Assembly: GCA_902512415.1 (NCBI GenBank)
Contig: CABXJB010000006.1
Location: forward strand, 1-39,354
Source: an uncultured Alphaproteobacteria bacterium
Lineage (GTDB): Bacteria > Pseudomonadota > Alphaproteobacteria > HIMB59 > GCA-002718135
DNA length: 39,354 bases
Reading direction: 5' to 3'
In this document: in pieces, positions 1,459 to 33,788 of the stretch
Layout: each line of letters opens with the position of its first letter
Numbering within the stretch: the stretch's first letter is position 1
Made by a program: the position numbers and the translations under genes
The notes under the pieces: model-generated
Told to the model about the DNA's origin: nothing
What the model saw: the letters and a program-made list of their open reading frames with translations, nothing else
Databases searched by the model: none

Positions 1459-2668
1459 AAGAATTACTTAAGGCTAAATGAATATTTTCTTTCAAAGGTT
1501 CTTTTCCAATTAAATTTATATTTCCTGACTCTATAGGATTATCTAAATTTAAAGTTGCTGGTAGTGTATTATTATTTATAGCAAGAATTGAAAATATTGC
1601 TTCAACACTTCCAGCTGCGCCCAGTAAATGGCCAATAGATGATTTTGTTGAACTTACAAAAAGATTTTTATTACTATTAAAAAGCCTTTTTATTGCATTA
1701 AGCTCTATTTGATCGCCTAAAATAGTAGAGGTCCCATGGGCATTAATATAATGAATATCATCTGAGGATAATTTTGCCATTTTTAGAGCTTCGATCATTG
1801 CTCTATAACCACCATCTCCATCTTCTGCCGGTGCAGTTATGTGGTAAGCATCTCCAGACATACCATAACCGATAAGTTCACCATAAATATTTGCTCCTCT
1901 TTTTTTTGCATATTCCATTTCTTCTAAAACTATTATTCCAGCACCTTCACCCATAACAAATCCATCACGATCAATATCCCATGGGCGAGAAGCTTTTTCG
2001 GGATTATCATTATAAGAGGTACTCAGACTTCTAGCTGCACAAAAACCAGCAACACCTAATCTACAAACAGCCGCTTCCGATCCTCCTGCAATCATAACAT
2101 TTGCCGCACCTCTTTTTATCATTTCACCTGCATCACCAATGGAATGTGCCCCTGTTGCACATGCAGTTACAACAGAATGATTAGGACCTTTGAAACCATA
2201 TTTTATAGATATTTGACCTGATAATAAATTTACTAATGACGAAGGAATAAAGAAAGGAGAAAGCTTCCTTGGACCTTTATTTTCCAATGTAAGTGATCCA
2301 TCATAAATAGTTTCCAGCCCACCTATACCGGATCCAACACTAATGCCAATTTTAAGTTTTTCTTTTTCATCAATATCACTTAATCCAGCATCTTCAATTG
2401 CCATTTTTGCAGCAGCAACTCCGTATTGAATAAATCTATCATTTCTTTTAATATCTTTTAATTCTAAATGTATTGATCTATCATAATAATGTGGCTCATT
2501 AATATTGTGAGATATAAATCCAGCAATTTCACAAGTTAATCCCTCTGTATTAAAATGTGATATTTTTTTAATACCAGACTGGCAATTTATTAAGTTATCC
2601 CAGGTATCTTCTTTGTTGTTACCAATTGAAGTAAGTAAACCTATTCCAGTAACAACTACACGCTTCAT
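1412..2668 (-). CDS. fabF: 3-oxoacyl-[acyl-carrier-protein] synthase II
   Basis: FabF condenses malonyl-ACP with acyl-ACP, the elongation step of type II fatty-acid synthesis. The 418-residue length is typical. The Cys-His-His triad is visible: Cys at about residue 170 in VVTACATGAHS, His in NAHGTSTILGD near residue 310, and His in SSIGHLLGAAGSVEA near residue 346. The C-terminal NSFGFGGTNTALLF is the usual glycine-rich end. It lies 11 bases after acpP on the same strand, and its 3' end overlaps mltG. The KasA/FabF type fits better than FabB because of the acpP-fabF pairing and the ACATGAHSIGDA context. Identification is secure. Confidence 0.97.
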   Translation of the reverse strand: MKRVVVTGIGLLTSIGNNKEDTWDNLINCQSGIKKISHFNTEGLTCEIAGFISHNINEPHYYDRSIHLELKDIKRNDRFIQYGVAAAKMAIEDAGLSDIDEKEKLKIGISVGSGIGGLETIYDGSLTLENKGPRKLSPFFIPSSLVNLLSGQISIKYGFKGPNHSVVTACATGAHSIGDAGEMIKRGAANVMIAGGSEAAVCRLGVAGFCAARSLSTSYNDNPEKASRPWDIDRDGFVMGEGAGIIVLEEMEYAKKRGANIYGELIGYGMSGDAYHITAPAEDGDGGYRAMIEALKMAKLSSDDIHYINAHGTSTILGDQIELNAIKRLFNSNKNLFVSSTKSSIGHLLGAAGSVEAIFSILAINNNTLPATLNLDNPIESGNINLIGKEPLKENIHLALSNSFGFGGTNTALLFKSI

Positions 2669-29683: not shown

Positions 29684-30441
29684 TGAAATTTCATTTTACA
29701 TCTTCTAATACTAAAGAAGCTATAAATGCTAAAGAAGAATACATAAGTTTATATTCTCAAAATGAACCTGAATTAGCTGATATAATTATTCCAATTGGCG
29801 GTGATGGAATTCTATTAAAATCTCTGCATGACTTTAATGATCTGAATAAGCCATTTTTTGGTATTAATTATGGCTCAGTTGGTTTTTTAATGAATTCAAC
29901 TAAGGACAATAAGCTAGAGGATCTAATAGAAAATTCTAAATTAACAGAATTAAGGCCTCTTAAAATGATTGCAAAAGATGATAGTGATAAAATTCATGAA
30001 TCAATTGCTTATAACGAAGTATCCTTAATGAGACAAAGTCATCAAGCTTCTAAATTTCTAATTAAAATTAACGATATTACGAGAATGAATGAATTAATTT
30101 GTGATGGAGTACTTGTCTCTACTTCTGCAGGGAGTACAGCCTATAATTTATCAGCTCATGGAAGTATACTTCCATTAGACTCAAAATTATTAGCTTTAAC
30201 TCCTATAAGTGCTTTTAGACCTAGAAGATGGAGGGGTGCCCTACTCTCAGAAAAAAACATAATAAAAATTAATGTACTAAATTTCAAAGATAGGCAAGTC
30301 AGTGTCACTGCTGATAATATAGAATTTAGAAATATTAAAGAAGTAACGATCCAATCATCTTCAGATAAAAGTTGTAAAATTTTATTTGATAATAATCACT
30401 CAATTGAAGATAAAATTTTAAATGAACAATTTGAGTATTAA
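29683..30441 (+). CDS. nadK: NAD kinase
   Basis: NadK phosphorylates NAD to NADP. The 252-residue protein is of the compact type. It has IIPIGGDGILLKSLHDF with the catalytic GGDG, FFGINYGSVGFLMN, AYNEVSLMRQSHQASKFLI, ELICDGVLVSTSAGSTAYNLSAHGSILPL (the family's DG---ST-TGSTAY--SAGG--) and RPRRWRGALL. It overlaps moaA by one base (TAATG) and ends three bases from the convergent VOC gene. Supplying NADP agrees with the use of NADP-dependent IDH, though that is not a specific link. Confidence 0.95.
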   Translation: MKFHFTSSNTKEAINAKEEYISLYSQNEPELADIIIPIGGDGILLKSLHDFNDLNKPFFGINYGSVGFLMNSTKDNKLEDLIENSKLTELRPLKMIAKDDSDKIHESIAYNEVSLMRQSHQASKFLIKINDITRMNELICDGVLVSTSAGSTAYNLSAHGSILPLDSKLLALTPISAFRPRRWRGALLSEKNIIKINVLNFKDRQVSVTADNIEFRNIKEVTIQSSSDKSCKILFDNNHSIEDKILNEQFEY

Positions 30442-30444
30442 AAC

Positions 30445-30822
30445 TTAATCAGAACAAAAAGCACATATTTTATTTCCATCGAGATCTCTAAAATATGCAT
30501 AATAATGCTCATCATGTCTCGGACCAGGCTTACCTTCATCTACCGCACCTAGTTTTAAGGCTAAATGATAGAATGAATCAACGCCTTTTTTTGAGTCAAC
30601 GCTAAAAGTAATCATTGTGCCATTGCCAAATGTTGCTTCTTTTTTATTATGAGGCCTCATAAGATAAAATTCAATTTTATTTAGACTTGTTTTTTTTGCA
30701 TATGCTGAAAACCAACCATCTTCATTTTCAACATTAATTATATTTATAGACTCAAGTAGTGTATCATAAAAAGGTTTACTTTTTTTTAGATCATTTGTGC
30801 CAAGAGTAATAAAACTAAACAT
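30445..30822 (-). CDS. VOC-superfamily (glyoxalase/bleomycin-resistance-like) protein
   Basis: This 125-residue single-domain VOC protein has the N-terminal SFITLGTNDLKKSKPFYDTLL block (beta-strand, then helix). It ends with GKPGPRHDEHYYAYFRDLDGNKICAFC, the usual last VOC strand pair containing the second-half metal ligand region (DLDGNKI). Members are glyoxalases, dioxygenases or drug-binding proteins; small stand-alone proteins like this are usually of unknown substrate. It is divergent from the metallopeptidase gene, sharing the control region with the operator-like repeats. Confidence 0.85.
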   Translation of the reverse strand: MFSFITLGTNDLKKSKPFYDTLLESINIINVENEDGWFSAYAKKTSLNKIEFYLMRPHNKKEATFGNGTMITFSVDSKKGVDSFYHLALKLGAVDEGKPGPRHDEHYYAYFRDLDGNKICAFCSD

Positions 30823-30839
30823 ATATAATATTACATATT

Positions 30840-30889
30840 ATCTATCAAAAAGATCAATAAATATCAGTAAAATTCTATCAAAAAGAATT
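30840..30889. promoter_or_regulatory. Pair of operator-like palindromes before the metallopeptidase gene
   Basis: The 13-mer TCTATCAAAAAGA occurs twice, at 30841-30853 and 30874-30886, exactly 33 bases apart, about three turns of B-DNA. Each copy is the centre of an inverted repeat around the same ATCAAAA spacer: ATCT/AGAT at 30840-30854 and AATTCT/AGAATT at 30871-30889. The pair sits in the 116-base divergent gap between the VOC and metallopeptidase genes, just ahead of a TAAAATAAT stretch that could be a -10. It looks like a tandem binding site for a dimeric regulator. No regulator gene is adjacent. Confidence 0.5.
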
Positions 30890-30938
30890 CTAAAATAATC
30901 TTAGAGTGAACTTCTTTATCGTGGTAGAAAAGGATAAA

Positions 30939-32183
30939 ATGAAAAAAACAATCTTCATTATTTGTCTATTTTTTTTATTTTCAACATCGTTGTTATCTAA
31001 AGAAGAAAAAATTTGTGATTGGATAATCACTGATGGAGATTATCAAAAATATCTGGATGATTTACCTAAATCAGACTTTCATTCTGCCTTTCATGTAGTC
31101 GTTGGCAGTGATGGCAAATGTGCATTTGGATGGCAATGGAATTATACACGACAGAACATGAAATCAACCAGAGGAATACAACAAGATACAGTACAGGGAT
31201 CATTTAATAATTGTGAGAAATGGAGGAAAGGATACGGAATCGATGGTGAATGCAAGCCTTATGATATTGATACAGAAATTGTTTGGAACAAGCCTGAGCA
31301 TAAAATACTGAAGTTACTTACAGAATTACTCGATGAAACAGCTCATAAAAAATTACTCGATGAATTTGCAACAACCTCATATCAGTGTTCAAATTCAAAA
31401 GATGTAAGTATGTGGGAGCTTGATTGTATTATTAATTCTAACGATCCATCAACATTGCAAGAAATCATATACATAGGAGAGGAAAAACGCAATATGTTTG
31501 AACCATGGTCGGTAAGAAAAGATAAAAGTCGACGTTTTTTATTTAAAGCTACCCCTTATGTCTTTGATGCTTATTTCGAAAATGGAAAAATTTTTGAAAT
31601 ACTTATATATTTTGAAAAGGAAAAAAATAAAGGAAAGGCTAAAGCTGAATCCCTTGCCAACAGTTATGCTTTTATGATTGGACAAATGCCTAATGTGCTT
31701 TTACAAAGATTAGACGCTGCACATATTTTTGCAGACATAGAAGGGGTTTCAAACGCTGCGGCTCACGATAGAACAATAGATATACATCCTGCGGGTGAAG
31801 GTGGCTATGAGATTGGAAATGCAATTGAAGAACTTTTTATGCATGAACTTGTTCATGCTTCTTTAGATAAACCAATCTATGGAGTTTACAAACCTATGAA
31901 CAAAAAAAGACATAAAAACGAAACCATTGAATCTAAAAAGCTTAGTTGGAGAGATTGGCGCAAAGCTGTGAAAAAGGATAAAAAAAAATATATAAATGAT
32001 TATGCAAAAACCTCAATGCATGAAGATTTAGCAGAAAGTTTTATTGCTTGGGTAGCTTTACGCTATAAAAGTAAAAGACTTCCAAATATCAAAATACAGG
32101 AAATAGAAAATAACATTCCTAATCGTATTATATTCTTTGATAAACAAAATTTTGACATGTATCCACTTACTCTTAATAATTAA
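30939..32183 (+). CDS. Secreted HELVH zinc metallopeptidase, uncharacterised
   Basis: I do not recognise a named family. I chose the ATG at 30939 (414 residues), because AAGGA sits five bases before it and the protein then starts with a normal signal peptide, MKKTIFIICLFFLFSTSLLS, probably cleaved near residue 20. The longer reading from a GTG at 30906 adds 11 residues ahead of the signal. The N-terminal domain has paired Cys and aromatic motifs (CDWIITDGDYQKYL, CAFGWQWNYTR, NNCEKWRKGYGIDGECKPY, EIVWN). The C-terminal domain has a gluzincin-like HELVHASLD at residues 302-310 and a later MHEDLAESFIAW with candidate third ligands Glu362 or Glu366. Between them lies a Lys-rich linker. The gene is visibly richer in G+C than its neighbours. 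It probably acts in the periplasm or outside the cell. Confidence 0.75.
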   Translation: MKKTIFIICLFFLFSTSLLSKEEKICDWIITDGDYQKYLDDLPKSDFHSAFHVVVGSDGKCAFGWQWNYTRQNMKSTRGIQQDTVQGSFNNCEKWRKGYGIDGECKPYDIDTEIVWNKPEHKILKLLTELLDETAHKKLLDEFATTSYQCSNSKDVSMWELDCIINSNDPSTLQEIIYIGEEKRNMFEPWSVRKDKSRRFLFKATPYVFDAYFENGKIFEILIYFEKEKNKGKAKAESLANSYAFMIGQMPNVLLQRLDAAHIFADIEGVSNAAAHDRTIDIHPAGEGGYEIGNAIEELFMHELVHASLDKPIYGVYKPMNKKRHKNETIESKKLSWRDWRKAVKKDKKKYINDYAKTSMHEDLAESFIAWVALRYKSKRLPNIKIQEIENNIPNRIIFFDKQNFDMYPLTLNN

Positions 32184-32238
32184 AATTCTTTTAATCAATT
32201 TATTTTAATATTAGTTAAATAAATATCTTTCTTTTTAT

Positions 32239-32853
32239 TTAAAACAAATAACCAAATCTTAATCGAAATGAATCTAATTTAATAACTTCTAGATAATCAG
32301 TGTCAGAATAATAAAGATCTAAATCAGTTTCAGAAACACTTAATCCAATAAATGTATTCTTTGTAATTTTTCTACTTAATTCTATGCCCTTAACTTCATA
32401 ATCATGTGTTGAGGTGTCTTCATTTGCGTAATCTGACCAATAAACGTTTAAATCACCTGAGCCGTAAAAAACAGAAGCCAGGTTTCTGCCAATTGAATAG
32501 CCAAGTTTTAATTTATATTCAAACAAATCATCGTACAACAGCCAACCATTTAAATTGGGTATAGCCTTATCTTCTCCAACATCATCTTGAAAATTTGTTT
32601 CAATCCCAACAATTATATCTTTGATTGAGTAGTTATATCCTAAAAAAATACCAGAATTATAAATATTCTTATCTGTTGATACATCATATGGATCATCAGT
32701 CCAAGTATCTGATGTTGCACTTGCACTTAATTTATCTTCTGATTTATAGAATCCTAAATAAAAACCTGACCAATCATCCAGAGTGACTATTTCAGCAAAA
32801 GCAAATTTAAAAAAAAAAATATTACATAAAATCAATAAAAAATATTTTTTCAT
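32239..32853 (-). CDS. Outer-membrane beta-barrel protein (Omp25/Omp31-like)
   Basis: The protein starts at the ATG at 32853 with a signal peptide (MKKYFLLILCNIFFFKFAFA); a GTG at 32868 would add five residues. The mature part begins with DDWSGFYLGFYKSED, the W-(S/T)-GFY-G motif of small alphaproteobacterial porin-like barrels. Alternating strands then follow (GIFLGYNYSI, VGIETNF, YKLKLGYSIG, FIGLSVSET), ending in SFRLRFGYLF with the C-terminal Phe that the BAM complex recognises. At 204 residues it could form an eight-stranded barrel. Function is not known. It is convergent with the metallopeptidase gene. Confidence 0.8.
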   Translation of the reverse strand: MKKYFLLILCNIFFFKFAFAEIVTLDDWSGFYLGFYKSEDKLSASATSDTWTDDPYDVSTDKNIYNSGIFLGYNYSIKDIIVGIETNFQDDVGEDKAIPNLNGWLLYDDLFEYKLKLGYSIGRNLASVFYGSGDLNVYWSDYANEDTSTHDYEVKGIELSRKITKNTFIGLSVSETDLDLYYSDTDYLEVIKLDSFRLRFGYLF

Positions 32854-32938
32854 AAATAATTTTACCACTTATGTGTAATAAGAAATAGATAAATTAATTA
32901 TATCTAATAATTCTGCAAAATATTGATTAGAAAATTAT

Positions 32939-33023
32939 TGGTAGCCTCGGCCGGACTTGAACCGGCACTCCCAAAAGGGCAAGGATTTTAAGTCCTTTGT
33001 GTCTACCATTCCACCACGAGGCC
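32939..33023 (-). tRNA. tRNA-Leu (anticodon UAA)
   Basis: The reverse strand folds into a class II tRNA. The acceptor is GGCCTCG with CGAGGCT (the first pair is G-U). The D stem is GTG/CAC around GAATGGTAGA. The anticodon stem is AAGGA/TCCTT with loop CTTAAAA, giving anticodon TAA, which reads UUA. A variable arm CCC-TTTT-GGG, a T stem GCCGG/CCGGC with loop TTCAAGT, discriminator A and an encoded CCA complete it. The 85-base length and variable arm fit Leu. It lies just downstream of the CinA-like gene on the same strand and could be cotranscribed with it. Confidence 0.96.
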
Positions 33024-33041
33024 AATTAAAAAAAAGTATTA

Positions 33042-33788
33042 TCAGACAATAGAGTATTTGCCACCATTAAATTTTATCATCTTAATAATTTCTTTTTCTA
33101 TTTCATCTAAAGAATTCAATTTCCATGAAGAGATAACAATATTAACGCCTCCCTTTTTTGAAATGAAATTGAAATATGGATAACTACCTATTGAGCAATC
33201 AATAAATTGATTTTGAATATCATTTAAGGAAGGTGCTATCTTACTTTCATATAAGTTAGTATTTATAGTTGTAATTTTTTTGGGGTTACCTTTCTTTAAT
33301 TTTATTAAAACATCTTTAAGCATTTGTTCCATAATTTTAGGAACACCAGGTAAAACAAAAACATTATTTATCTTAAATCCTGGAGCTGCTGTCATAGGAT
33401 TATAAATTAATTCCACATCTGAGGGCATTTTAGCCATTCTCTGTCTACTAATATTAAACTCACCTTCAGGATAATATTTTTTTAAAATATTGTAAGCCTC
33501 AGCATTAGTCTCATATTTTTTATTAAAAGCCTCTGCTAAACTTTCTGAAGTAATATCATCATGTGTTGGGCCAATTCCTCCAGTCGTAAAAACATAATTA
33601 TAAGTTTCACTAAAAAATTTTACTGTGTCTATTATAATTTTTTTTTCATCCTGAATTACTCTTATTTCTTCCAGTTTAATTCCGGAAGCAGTTAAATTTT
33701 TGGCAATAAAGTTCGCATTCGTATCCTGAGTTCTTCCTGACAATATTTCATCACCAATTATTAAAATTCCAGCTGTAAAAAGACTCAT
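33042..33788 (-). CDS. CinA N-terminal domain / molybdopterin-binding (COG1058) protein
   Basis: The 248-residue protein has the MoaB/MogA-like fold of the CinA N-terminal domain: AGILIIGDEILSGRTQDTNANFIAKNL at about residues 7-33, VFTTGGIGPTHDDITSESLAEAF at about residues 66-88, and MTAAPGFKINNVFVLPGVPKIMEQM. In full-length CinA a nicotinamide-nucleotide amidase domain (PncC) follows; here it is absent. Stand-alone COG1058 proteins are common and have been linked to ADP-ribose pyrophosphatase activity and nucleotide clean-up. It is divergent from map. Confidence 0.88.
   Translation of the reverse strand: MSLFTAGILIIGDEILSGRTQDTNANFIAKNLTASGIKLEEIRVIQDEKKIIIDTVKFFSETYNYVFTTGGIGPTHDDITSESLAEAFNKKYETNAEAYNILKKYYPEGEFNISRQRMAKMPSDVELIYNPMTAAPGFKINNVFVLPGVPKIMEQMLKDVLIKLKKGNPKKITTINTNLYESKIAPSLNDIQNQFIDCSIGSYPYFNFISKKGGVNIVISSWKLNSLDEIEKEIIKMIKFNGGKYSIV

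What the first reader, a model, noticed from the sequence alone, without database searches (positions are those of the whole stretch)
30939..32183. Uncharacterised secreted HELVH metallopeptidase with a shifted base composition
A signal peptide, a Cys/Trp-rich N-terminal domain and a HELVH-ASLD plus EDLAESF C-terminal domain make a plausible extracytoplasmic zinc peptidase that I cannot place in a named family. The HExxH followed some 60 residues later by an E-D-x-A-E helix recalls the lethal-factor / Pro-Pro endopeptidase type of gluzincin, but this is only a pattern resemblance. Hand counts of two adjacent 60-base lines give 45% and 37% G+C (31081-31200), against about 23% for a line in nadK (29701-29760), suggesting recent transfer.
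Basis: partly seen in the sequence, partly recalled or inferred. Interest (0 to 1): 0.6.

Follow-up and report, generated by a model that had tools for sequence, protein, structure and literature searches.

The report
Secreted zinc protease on mobile cassette
A free-living marine bacterium appears to carry a recently exchanged gene for a secreted zinc protease of a family that no reference library used here names, shaped like the catalytic part of some bacillus and clostridial proteases and related to protease domains that phages and a type VI secretion protein carry.

Summary
Window 30939-32183 encodes 414 residues: signal peptide, four-Cys N-terminal domain, and a C-terminal domain with HELVH (302-306) and EDLAE (362-366). 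Pfam, NCBIfam, PHROGs and PDB sequences do not place it. Relatives show a modular family: secreted stand-alone enzymes, MORN fusions, giant proteins, a weakly lectin-like fusion, a PAAR protein. Sixteen columns never vary in 20 aligned sequences. Models of this protein and of a stand-alone relative (pLDDT 91.5) align best to anthrax lethal factor and PPEPs (best Z 8.0, 8.1), with zinc Glu and catalytic Tyr at similar spacings; Foldseek alone saw nothing significant. So an LF/PPEP-like gluzincin is supported as fold and likely mechanism, not as family membership. Transfer is supported, but hardly by G+C: from about 30400 the DNA is 91-97% identical, gene by gene, to MarineAlpha5_Bin5 against 74-82% for flanking genes; 23 of 29 other nadK loci show the site without cargo and none shows the gene; the neighbouring outer-membrane protein occurs in the same 2 of 101 genomes; a tRNA-Leu abuts. 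A phage contig encodes a secreted member, and phage head proteins carry distant versions. Substrate and role are unknown. A new family of a known kind of enzyme.

The parts
30939..32183 (+). secreted gluzincin-type peptidase gene, 414 aa (PEP)
   Evidence: no family hit
30939..30998 (+). signal peptide (about residues 1-20), read from sequence
   Evidence: sequence pattern (KK, hydrophobic core); no signal-peptide program was run
31002..31292 (+). N-terminal domain (about residues 22-118) with four Cys (26, 61, 92, 105) invariant in 7 rows
31419..32180 (+). peptidase domain (about residues 161-414)
31842..31856 (+). HELVH, residues 302-306: two zinc His and general-base Glu (inferred)
   Evidence: invariant H, E, H
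31887..31940 (+). 18-residue insertion (317-334) absent from the other 22 rows of A5, but shared with the MarineAlpha5_Bin5 copy (not in A5)
32001..32003 (+). Tyr355, invariant; equivalent of the PPEP oxyanion Tyr (inferred)
32022..32036 (+). EDLAE, residues 362-366; E362 the likely third zinc ligand (inferred)
32118..32126 (+). PNR, residues 394-396, invariant near the C terminus
32239..32868 (-). small outer-membrane beta-barrel-like protein, co-transferred partner gene
   Evidence: Pfam OMP_b-brl E 1.2e-4, 22.8 bits, below the cut-off of 28.7; matched in 2 of 101 genomes, G000 and G060
30445..30822 (-). glyoxalase-fold protein, left part of the high-identity tract
30401..32571 (.). tract of 91-97% nucleotide identity, gene by gene, to MarineAlpha5_Bin5 (two 200-base bins dip to 81% and 87%), starting in the 3' end of nadK; right end unseen because that contig ends
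32939..33023 (-). tRNA-Leu(UAA), 3' end facing the cassette

Best explanation
The gene encodes an exported zinc endopeptidase. After Sec export the C-terminal domain, folded like the catalytic domains of anthrax lethal factor and the Pro-Pro endopeptidases, holds zinc with H302, H306 and E362; E303 activates water and Y355 steadies the transition state; a protein substrate lies along an edge strand just before the active helix. The four-Cys N-terminal domain is an accessory (anchor, inhibitor or substrate-binding) module reused by another, M61-like peptidase in the same genus. The enzyme moved, with a neighbouring outer-membrane barrel gene, as a two-gene cassette into a variable site beside tRNA-Leu, most likely by homologous recombination. 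Shown by computation: domain layout, conservation, nearest fold, sites without the gene, identity step. Inferred: zinc, catalysis, export, substrate outside the cytoplasm. Role (my bet): acting on surface proteins of neighbouring cells, phages or the cell itself rather than feeding.
For: No family match (4-7, 19-21) but a coherent family with invariant HExxH...Y...EDxAE...PNR. Two models: full length, 19 of 26 ten-residue blocks from residue 161 on at pLDDT 77 or more, and stand-alone relative L003, mean 91.5. VIA-align: in the first, rows 1-18 and 20-26 are LF or PPEP-1, best Z 8.0 (178 aligned, rmsd 4.6); in the second, rows 1-46 are PPEP-1/2/3, LF or Certhrax (LF-related as recalled), best Z 8.1 (152 aligned, rmsd 4.3); aminopeptidases come at about Z 6. 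PPEP-3: His153/His157, Tyr190, Glu197, that is Tyr to Glu 7 and second His to Glu 40; LF: His690 to Glu735, 45; this family: Tyr to Glu 7-8 by alignment column, second His to Glu 35-39, and 56 with the insertion. Transfer: nadK 74%, moaA 76%, dksA 82% against glyoxalase 97%, PEP 91-96%, OMP 94% nucleotide identity to MarineAlpha5_Bin5; dS 1.06-1.63 against 0.03-0.11; step at about 30400; 23 of 29 other nadK loci have glyoxalase next to cinA and none of the 29 shows the gene; OMP matched in G000 and G060 only, of 101.
Against: Z about 8 is in the range that models without a clear match reach by the tool's own note. Lugdulysin, an M30 peptidase, stands at rank 19 with Z 7.1 (50), tied within 1 with the LF rows; LF leads the aminopeptidases by only about 2 Z. 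Some LF rows (1jky, 1pwq) align to residues about 32-254, not the catalytic part. No zinc, activity or export was measured, and no active-site geometry. The MarineAlpha5_Bin5 copy is frame-broken after about residue 349, and its OMP also reads in two frames, so the gene may be decaying there or misassembled. The tract lies at the end of that MAG contig, so a chimeric contig end is possible. No clear repeat was found at the edges.
Confidence: 0.7

Rival explanations
1. It is a polymorphic, conflict-type effector peptidase: one toxin-like domain reused in secreted proteins, a PAAR (type VI) protein and phage head proteins, here aimed at competitors, with the barrel protein as partner or protection.
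For: PAAR-peptidase L030 (E 7.3e-9; PAAR motif E 2e-10) with a 134-residue ORF that begins with a hydrophobic segment within 10 bases after it. A secreted member at 46% identity to L003 on a phage contig with RNA polymerase, terminase and head genes. Of 7 phage ORFs scanned, 5 match head-and-packaging families ahead of the peptidase part (4 head morphogenesis, minor head or maturation-protease families, 1 portal). BFVD: 2 of 822 matches at E <= 0.001, one named minor capsid protein (E 1.7e-7). Profile-profile probability 98.5. dN/dS 0.83 over residues 1-348 against 0.20 for glyoxalase in the same tract (rounded counts, Fisher p 0.03).
Against: The phage ORFs were picked by the active-site pattern; with its seven residues masked, 4 of 130 stay at E < 0.001, and with L030 also left out of the profile 2 of 130. 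The N/S ratio in the fast segments is about neutral, and one copy is frame-broken. No immunity gene was identified here. PADLOC gave nothing for 6 proteins at E <= 0.1.
Confidence: 0.3
2. A true Pro-Pro endopeptidase that cuts proline-rich surface proteins, as PPEP-1 does.
For: PPEP-1 is among the top rows of the first structural comparison and PPEP-1, -2 and -3 among those of the second.
Against: No sequence match to a PPEP in the PDB sequence searches. LF, which is not Pro-Pro specific (recalled), fits equally well (Z within 1). Specificity elements (S-loop, diverting loop) were not tested. The adjacent OMP, if it were the substrate, has no Pro-Pro.
Confidence: 0.1
3. An ordinary scavenging protease for peptide nutrition.
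For: A signal peptide by eye; stand-alone relatives exist.
Against: Patchy: 16 of 162 genomes of the order, own included (many are incomplete), with MORN, PAAR, weakly lectin-like and giant-protein partners, unlike a core nutritional enzyme.
Confidence: 0.15
4. A catalytically dead or decaying gene.
For: The MarineAlpha5_Bin5 copy is frame-broken; dN/dS 0.83.
Against: The window copy is intact with every invariant residue; residues 301-330 and a 64-codon C-terminal piece differ from the other copy by about one silent and one replacement change each.
Confidence: 0.08

Closest known systems
Anthrax lethal factor catalytic domain (Pfam PF07737 ATLF; MEROPS M34 as recalled)
   Same: Best fold row of the full-length model (Z 8.0, 178 aligned, 16% identity); HExxH, then a Glu on a later helix (His690 to Glu735, PMC5668564, passages).
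   Different: No PF07737 hit in 9 of 9 peptidase domains at E <= 10. No receptor-binding or translocation part seen. Encoded by a marine bacterium; substrate unknown.
Pro-Pro endopeptidases PPEP-1, -2, -3
   Same: Best rows of the stand-alone model (Z 8.1, 152 of 194 residues); similar Tyr/Glu spacing (PMC12828418, passages); small secreted enzymes.
   Different: 17% identity or less in the rows shown; from Firmicutes as recalled; Pro-Pro specificity untested.
MuF polymorphic toxins and polyvalent phage proteins with zincin-like metallopeptidase domains (PMC5576092, PMC5512222, passages)
   Same: Phage ORFs found here carry a related domain behind MuF-like, head or portal domains; PMC5576092 reports a metallopeptidase domain in 20% of 191 putative MuF toxins.
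   Different: The window protein has no phage or secretion-system domain; it has a signal peptide.
VgrG2b C-terminal effector of Pseudomonas aeruginosa (PMC6899460, passages)
   Same: A gluzincin that is toxic in the periplasm; PAAR relative L030 suggests a parallel.
   Different: Relatives are annotated as DUF4157 there; no DUF4157 hit here.
Lugdulysin (M30 peptidase, PDB 7bb8)
   Same: Rank 19 for the full-length model, Z 7.1, 147 aligned.
   Different: 6% identity; not among the 50 rows of the stand-alone model.

Membership tests
MA(E) gluzincin zinc peptidases | HExxH plus a Glu zinc ligand on a downstream helix | tested here: met
   motif residues invariant in 20 rows; helices 296-314 and 360-376 in the model. 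Metal binding itself is not testable here
Pfam PF07737 ATLF / lethal-factor family | sequence match to the family model | tested here: not met
   no hit for the window protein at E <= 1 nor for 9 members at E <= 10; one phage relative, L231, has a sub-threshold hit, 19.3 bits against 27.4
Lethal-factor / PPEP fold group | catalytic-domain fold | tested here: inconclusive
   top VIA-align rows for two models, but Z about 8, M30 at 7.1, and no significant Foldseek match
Pro-Pro endopeptidase | catalytic Tyr 7 residues before the zinc Glu | tested here: met
   7 in the window protein; 8 in most relatives, read from the alignment column
Pro-Pro endopeptidase | cleavage between two prolines | not testable with these tools
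   needs an enzyme assay
MuF / PAAR polymorphic toxins | delivery domain (MuF, PAAR, VgrG) in the same protein | tested here: not met
   window protein has none; distant relatives do
MuF / PAAR polymorphic toxins | cognate immunity gene | not tested
   no functional test; the OMP is only a candidate partner
DUF4189 (N-terminal domain) | match at Pfam's cut-off | tested here: not met
   4 of 7 N-domain rows hit weakly, best E 7.2e-4; the window's own has no hit at E <= 1; L007 scores 15.8 against 25

The most novel reading that the evidence does not exclude
The peptidase is one branch of an unnamed superfamily of LF/PPEP-like effector peptidases that moves between phage genomes (as a secreted protein and inside head proteins), a type VI spike-tip protein and free secreted enzymes of ocean bacteria, where it is exchanged between species, with an outer-membrane barrel partner, at a tRNA-Leu hot spot as a weapon or surface-remodelling tool. 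It would put lethal-factor-type domains in streamlined marine bacteria with no known animal host.
Probability: 0.3. Interest if true: 0.7.

Novelty: new variant of a known kind. Interest (0 to 1): 0.52.

Why it matters
It defines a peptidase family absent from Pfam, NCBIfam and PHROGs as searched here, with a recognisable signature and domain partners, in an uncultured-rich ocean order. It suggests that the fold best known from anthrax and clostridial secreted proteases is a general conflict or surface-processing tool in free-living bacteria and their phages. The stand-alone members of about 250 residues make its specificity directly testable in a laboratory strain.

Tried and rejected
Base composition as the argument for transfer: rejected as weak; replaced by the identity step and the sites without the gene. 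Sequence placement by Pfam, NCBIfam, PHROGs, PADLOC and PDB sequence: nothing usable for the window protein (best PDB hit E 0.058 for the protein and 0.16 for the profile, judged chance). Phage and plasmid record searches by protein: no match (window domain in phages; L003 in plasmids; L160 in phages). IMG/VR scans by peptide patterns: no relative with the window protein or A3; with L160 only itself. Foldseek against the PDB: no useful match. The N-terminal domain could not be placed: model about pLDDT 35-71 per block, weak DUF4189 and Staphopain_pro hits. Peptide nutrition and Pro-Pro specificity are kept as rivals. A positive-selection claim was rejected: fast segments (121-210, 271-300) have near-neutral N:S counts and do not differ from the rest (p 0.29). 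A repeat at the cassette edges: only an 11-mer, judged chance in AT-rich DNA. The tree of 23 peptidase domains leaves the window row unplaced on a long branch. Sigma-70-like sites in 30700-33100: 11 found against 14.6 expected, so uninformative. Papers: in ten searches none of the titles and abstract starts listed describes this family; the lists were cut. Passages were read of PMC12828418, PMC11460543, PMC5668564, PMC6899460, PMC8879329, PMC10734472, PMC3482391, PMC5512222 and PMC5576092, no paper in full. PMC8610288 is not held.

Full report
What is there. Window 30939-32183 (+) encodes 414 residues. The ATG follows AAAAGGAT. Neighbours are moaA, nadK and a glyoxalase-fold gene on the left, and an outer-membrane barrel, tRNA-Leu(UAA), a MoCF protein that I call cinA, an M24 peptidase gene and a gene that I call purB on the right (the names cinA and purB are from recall). 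The genome is 925 kb in 55 contigs, 61.6% complete. Its relative G060 has a contig of the same length and sequence match as PTKZ01000023.1, titled MarineAlpha5_Bin5; HIMB59 and MarineAlpha5 are called related taxa in PMC8879329 (passages).

No library names it. The full protein has no hit in Pfam (E <= 1), NCBIfam (E <= 10) or PHROGs (E <= 10). Nine peptidase domains have no NCBIfam hit and only scattered Pfam hits of E 0.11 or worse. PDB sequences give nothing below E 0.058.

The family. The protein finds 19 of 101 genomes, own included, and the matches split into two modules. Residues 1 to about 118 are shared with proteins of 444-450 residues; the one scanned, L007, has an M61-like domain behind it (Pfam E 1.5e-5, 25.8 bits against a cut-off of 22). 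The N-domain is in 24 of 162 genomes of the order (one at E 7.8e-4) and 2 of 190 of the class. The peptidase domain is in 16 of 162 genomes of the order, 4 of 385 of the class, 6 of 398 of the phylum (one at E 9.3e-4) and 1 of 229 of the class of G543; own or centre genome included each time. Architectures: stand-alone with a signal peptide by eye; N-domain plus MORN repeats plus peptidase in 3 genomes (MORN by Pfam in the two scanned); peptidase near the N terminus of open frames of 1536 and 2271 residues without a confident Pfam domain behind it; a peptidase followed by a weak ricin-B-like region (E 0.01, 16.9 bits against 25.6); a PAAR protein. Sixteen columns are invariant in 20 rows: G, P, E, H, E, H, W, D, Y, E, D, A, E, P, N, R. 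An 18-residue insertion between HExxH and the conserved Trp sets the window row apart from the other 22 rows of A5; the MarineAlpha5_Bin5 copy, not in A5, has it too.

Fold. The full-length model has mean pLDDT 69.3; blocks before residue 161 lie at 35-71, and 19 of 26 blocks after it at 77 or more, with a dip to 49 at the insertion. The stand-alone relative L003 gives 91.5. VIA-align puts LF first for one (Z 8.0) and PPEP-1 first for the other (Z 8.1). The tool warns that Z about 8 can be a common arrangement. Foldseek alone saw nothing below E 0.03 in the PDB, and no LF or PPEP row among the 50 shown in either search. What tips the balance for me is the agreement of two models, coverage of most of PPEP-1 (152 of 194), and layout: in PPEP-3 His153, Glu154, His157, Tyr190, Glu197 (PMC12828418, passages), in LF His686, His690, Glu735 (PMC5668564, passages), here His302, Glu303, His306, Tyr355, Glu362. 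These assignments are inference from alignment and spacing.

Phage relatives. BFVD gave two matches at E <= 0.001, of 822, for the L003 model, one named minor capsid protein. Of 14,068 ORFs in them 22 reach E <= 0.001 with the family profile; of the 130 ORFs with the in-frame pattern, 4 stay below 0.001 when the seven pattern residues are masked, and 2 when L030 is also left out of the profile; one of them, L160, stands at 205 bits. L160 is a member with a signal peptide by eye, 46% identical to L003 over 236 residues and 29% to the window protein, on a contig with RNA polymerase beta, terminase, head maturation protease and virion genes. Of seven phage ORFs scanned, five match head-and-packaging families, one of them a portal. 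Profile-profile comparison of nine family members with six phage domains gives probability 98.5; the phage rows were chosen by motif, so this is supportive only. L231 has a sub-threshold ATLF hit, but it is not among those that survive masking. Metallopeptidases in MuF and polyvalent phage proteins are already described, so the phage link extends known biology.

Transfer. Against MarineAlpha5_Bin5, nucleotide identity is 82% (dksA), 76% (moaA) and 74% (nadK), then 97% (glyoxalase), 95% (intergenic), 96% (N-domain), 91% (peptidase), 91% (intergenic) and 94% (the 333 bases of OMP that align there); two 200-base bins inside dip to 81% and 87%. dS falls from 1.06-1.63 to 0.03-0.11. The step is at about 30400, inside nadK. 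nadK was found in 50 of 61 genomes and 30 loci were kept. Of the 29 that are not the window, 23 have glyoxalase followed by cinA at once, 4 have other DNA there, and 2 from another family have no glyoxalase match; none shows the gene in the stretch seen. Three of the four were read further: three other genes, one gene that looks like agmatine deiminase (from recall), and 545 bases without an ORF of 60 residues. The barrel protein was matched in G000 and G060 only, of 101. tRNA-Leu was found in 9 of 10 such loci scanned; the cassette faces its 3' end, while in two relatives the cargo lies on its other side. I saw no clear repeat at the edges, so homologous recombination fits best, as proposed for HIMB59 islands (PMC10734472, passages); the right end of the tract is unseen. 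Caveat: both genomes are drafts, and the tract ends with the G060 contig.

Verdict. An exported zinc peptidase of an unnamed family, LF/PPEP-like in fold and probable mechanism, not a member of ATLF by sequence, recently exchanged with a barrel partner. Its substrate and role are open; the conflict-effector reading is the most interesting that survives.

Noticed in passing
L030 1008-1409 (-) beside L030 1420-2745 (-): A PAAR-peptidase fusion is followed within 10 bases by a 134-residue ORF starting with a hydrophobic segment, a candidate immunity gene.
   Followed up: partly
L354 6001-7035 (IMGVR_UViG_3300037010_001482): A phage contig, jumbo-phage-like by its RNA polymerase subunit gene (inference), encodes a secreted-looking member of this peptidase family.
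   Followed up: partly
L007-L009, L011-L017, L050-L067: Proteins of 444-450 residues join the same four-Cys N-domain to an HEYFH peptidase domain, M61-like in the one scanned; two different peptidases share one accessory module.
   Followed up: partly
L010, L047, L048: Fusions of the N-domain, MORN repeats and the peptidase domain; L010 and L047 are near-identical but differ in length, apparently by MORN repeats.
   Followed up: no
L106, L107, L108, L091: The glyoxalase-tRNA-Leu-cinA gap is a variable site with different cargo in relatives; in L108 ARAGORN finds no tRNA-Leu.
   Followed up: partly
L021 / L109 (G060): Both cassette genes are frame-broken in this MAG at or near the contig end, either decay or assembly error.
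   Followed up: partly
window 1801-2400: The 600-base bin with the highest G+C of the window (38%), inside the ORF 1412-2668.
   Followed up: no
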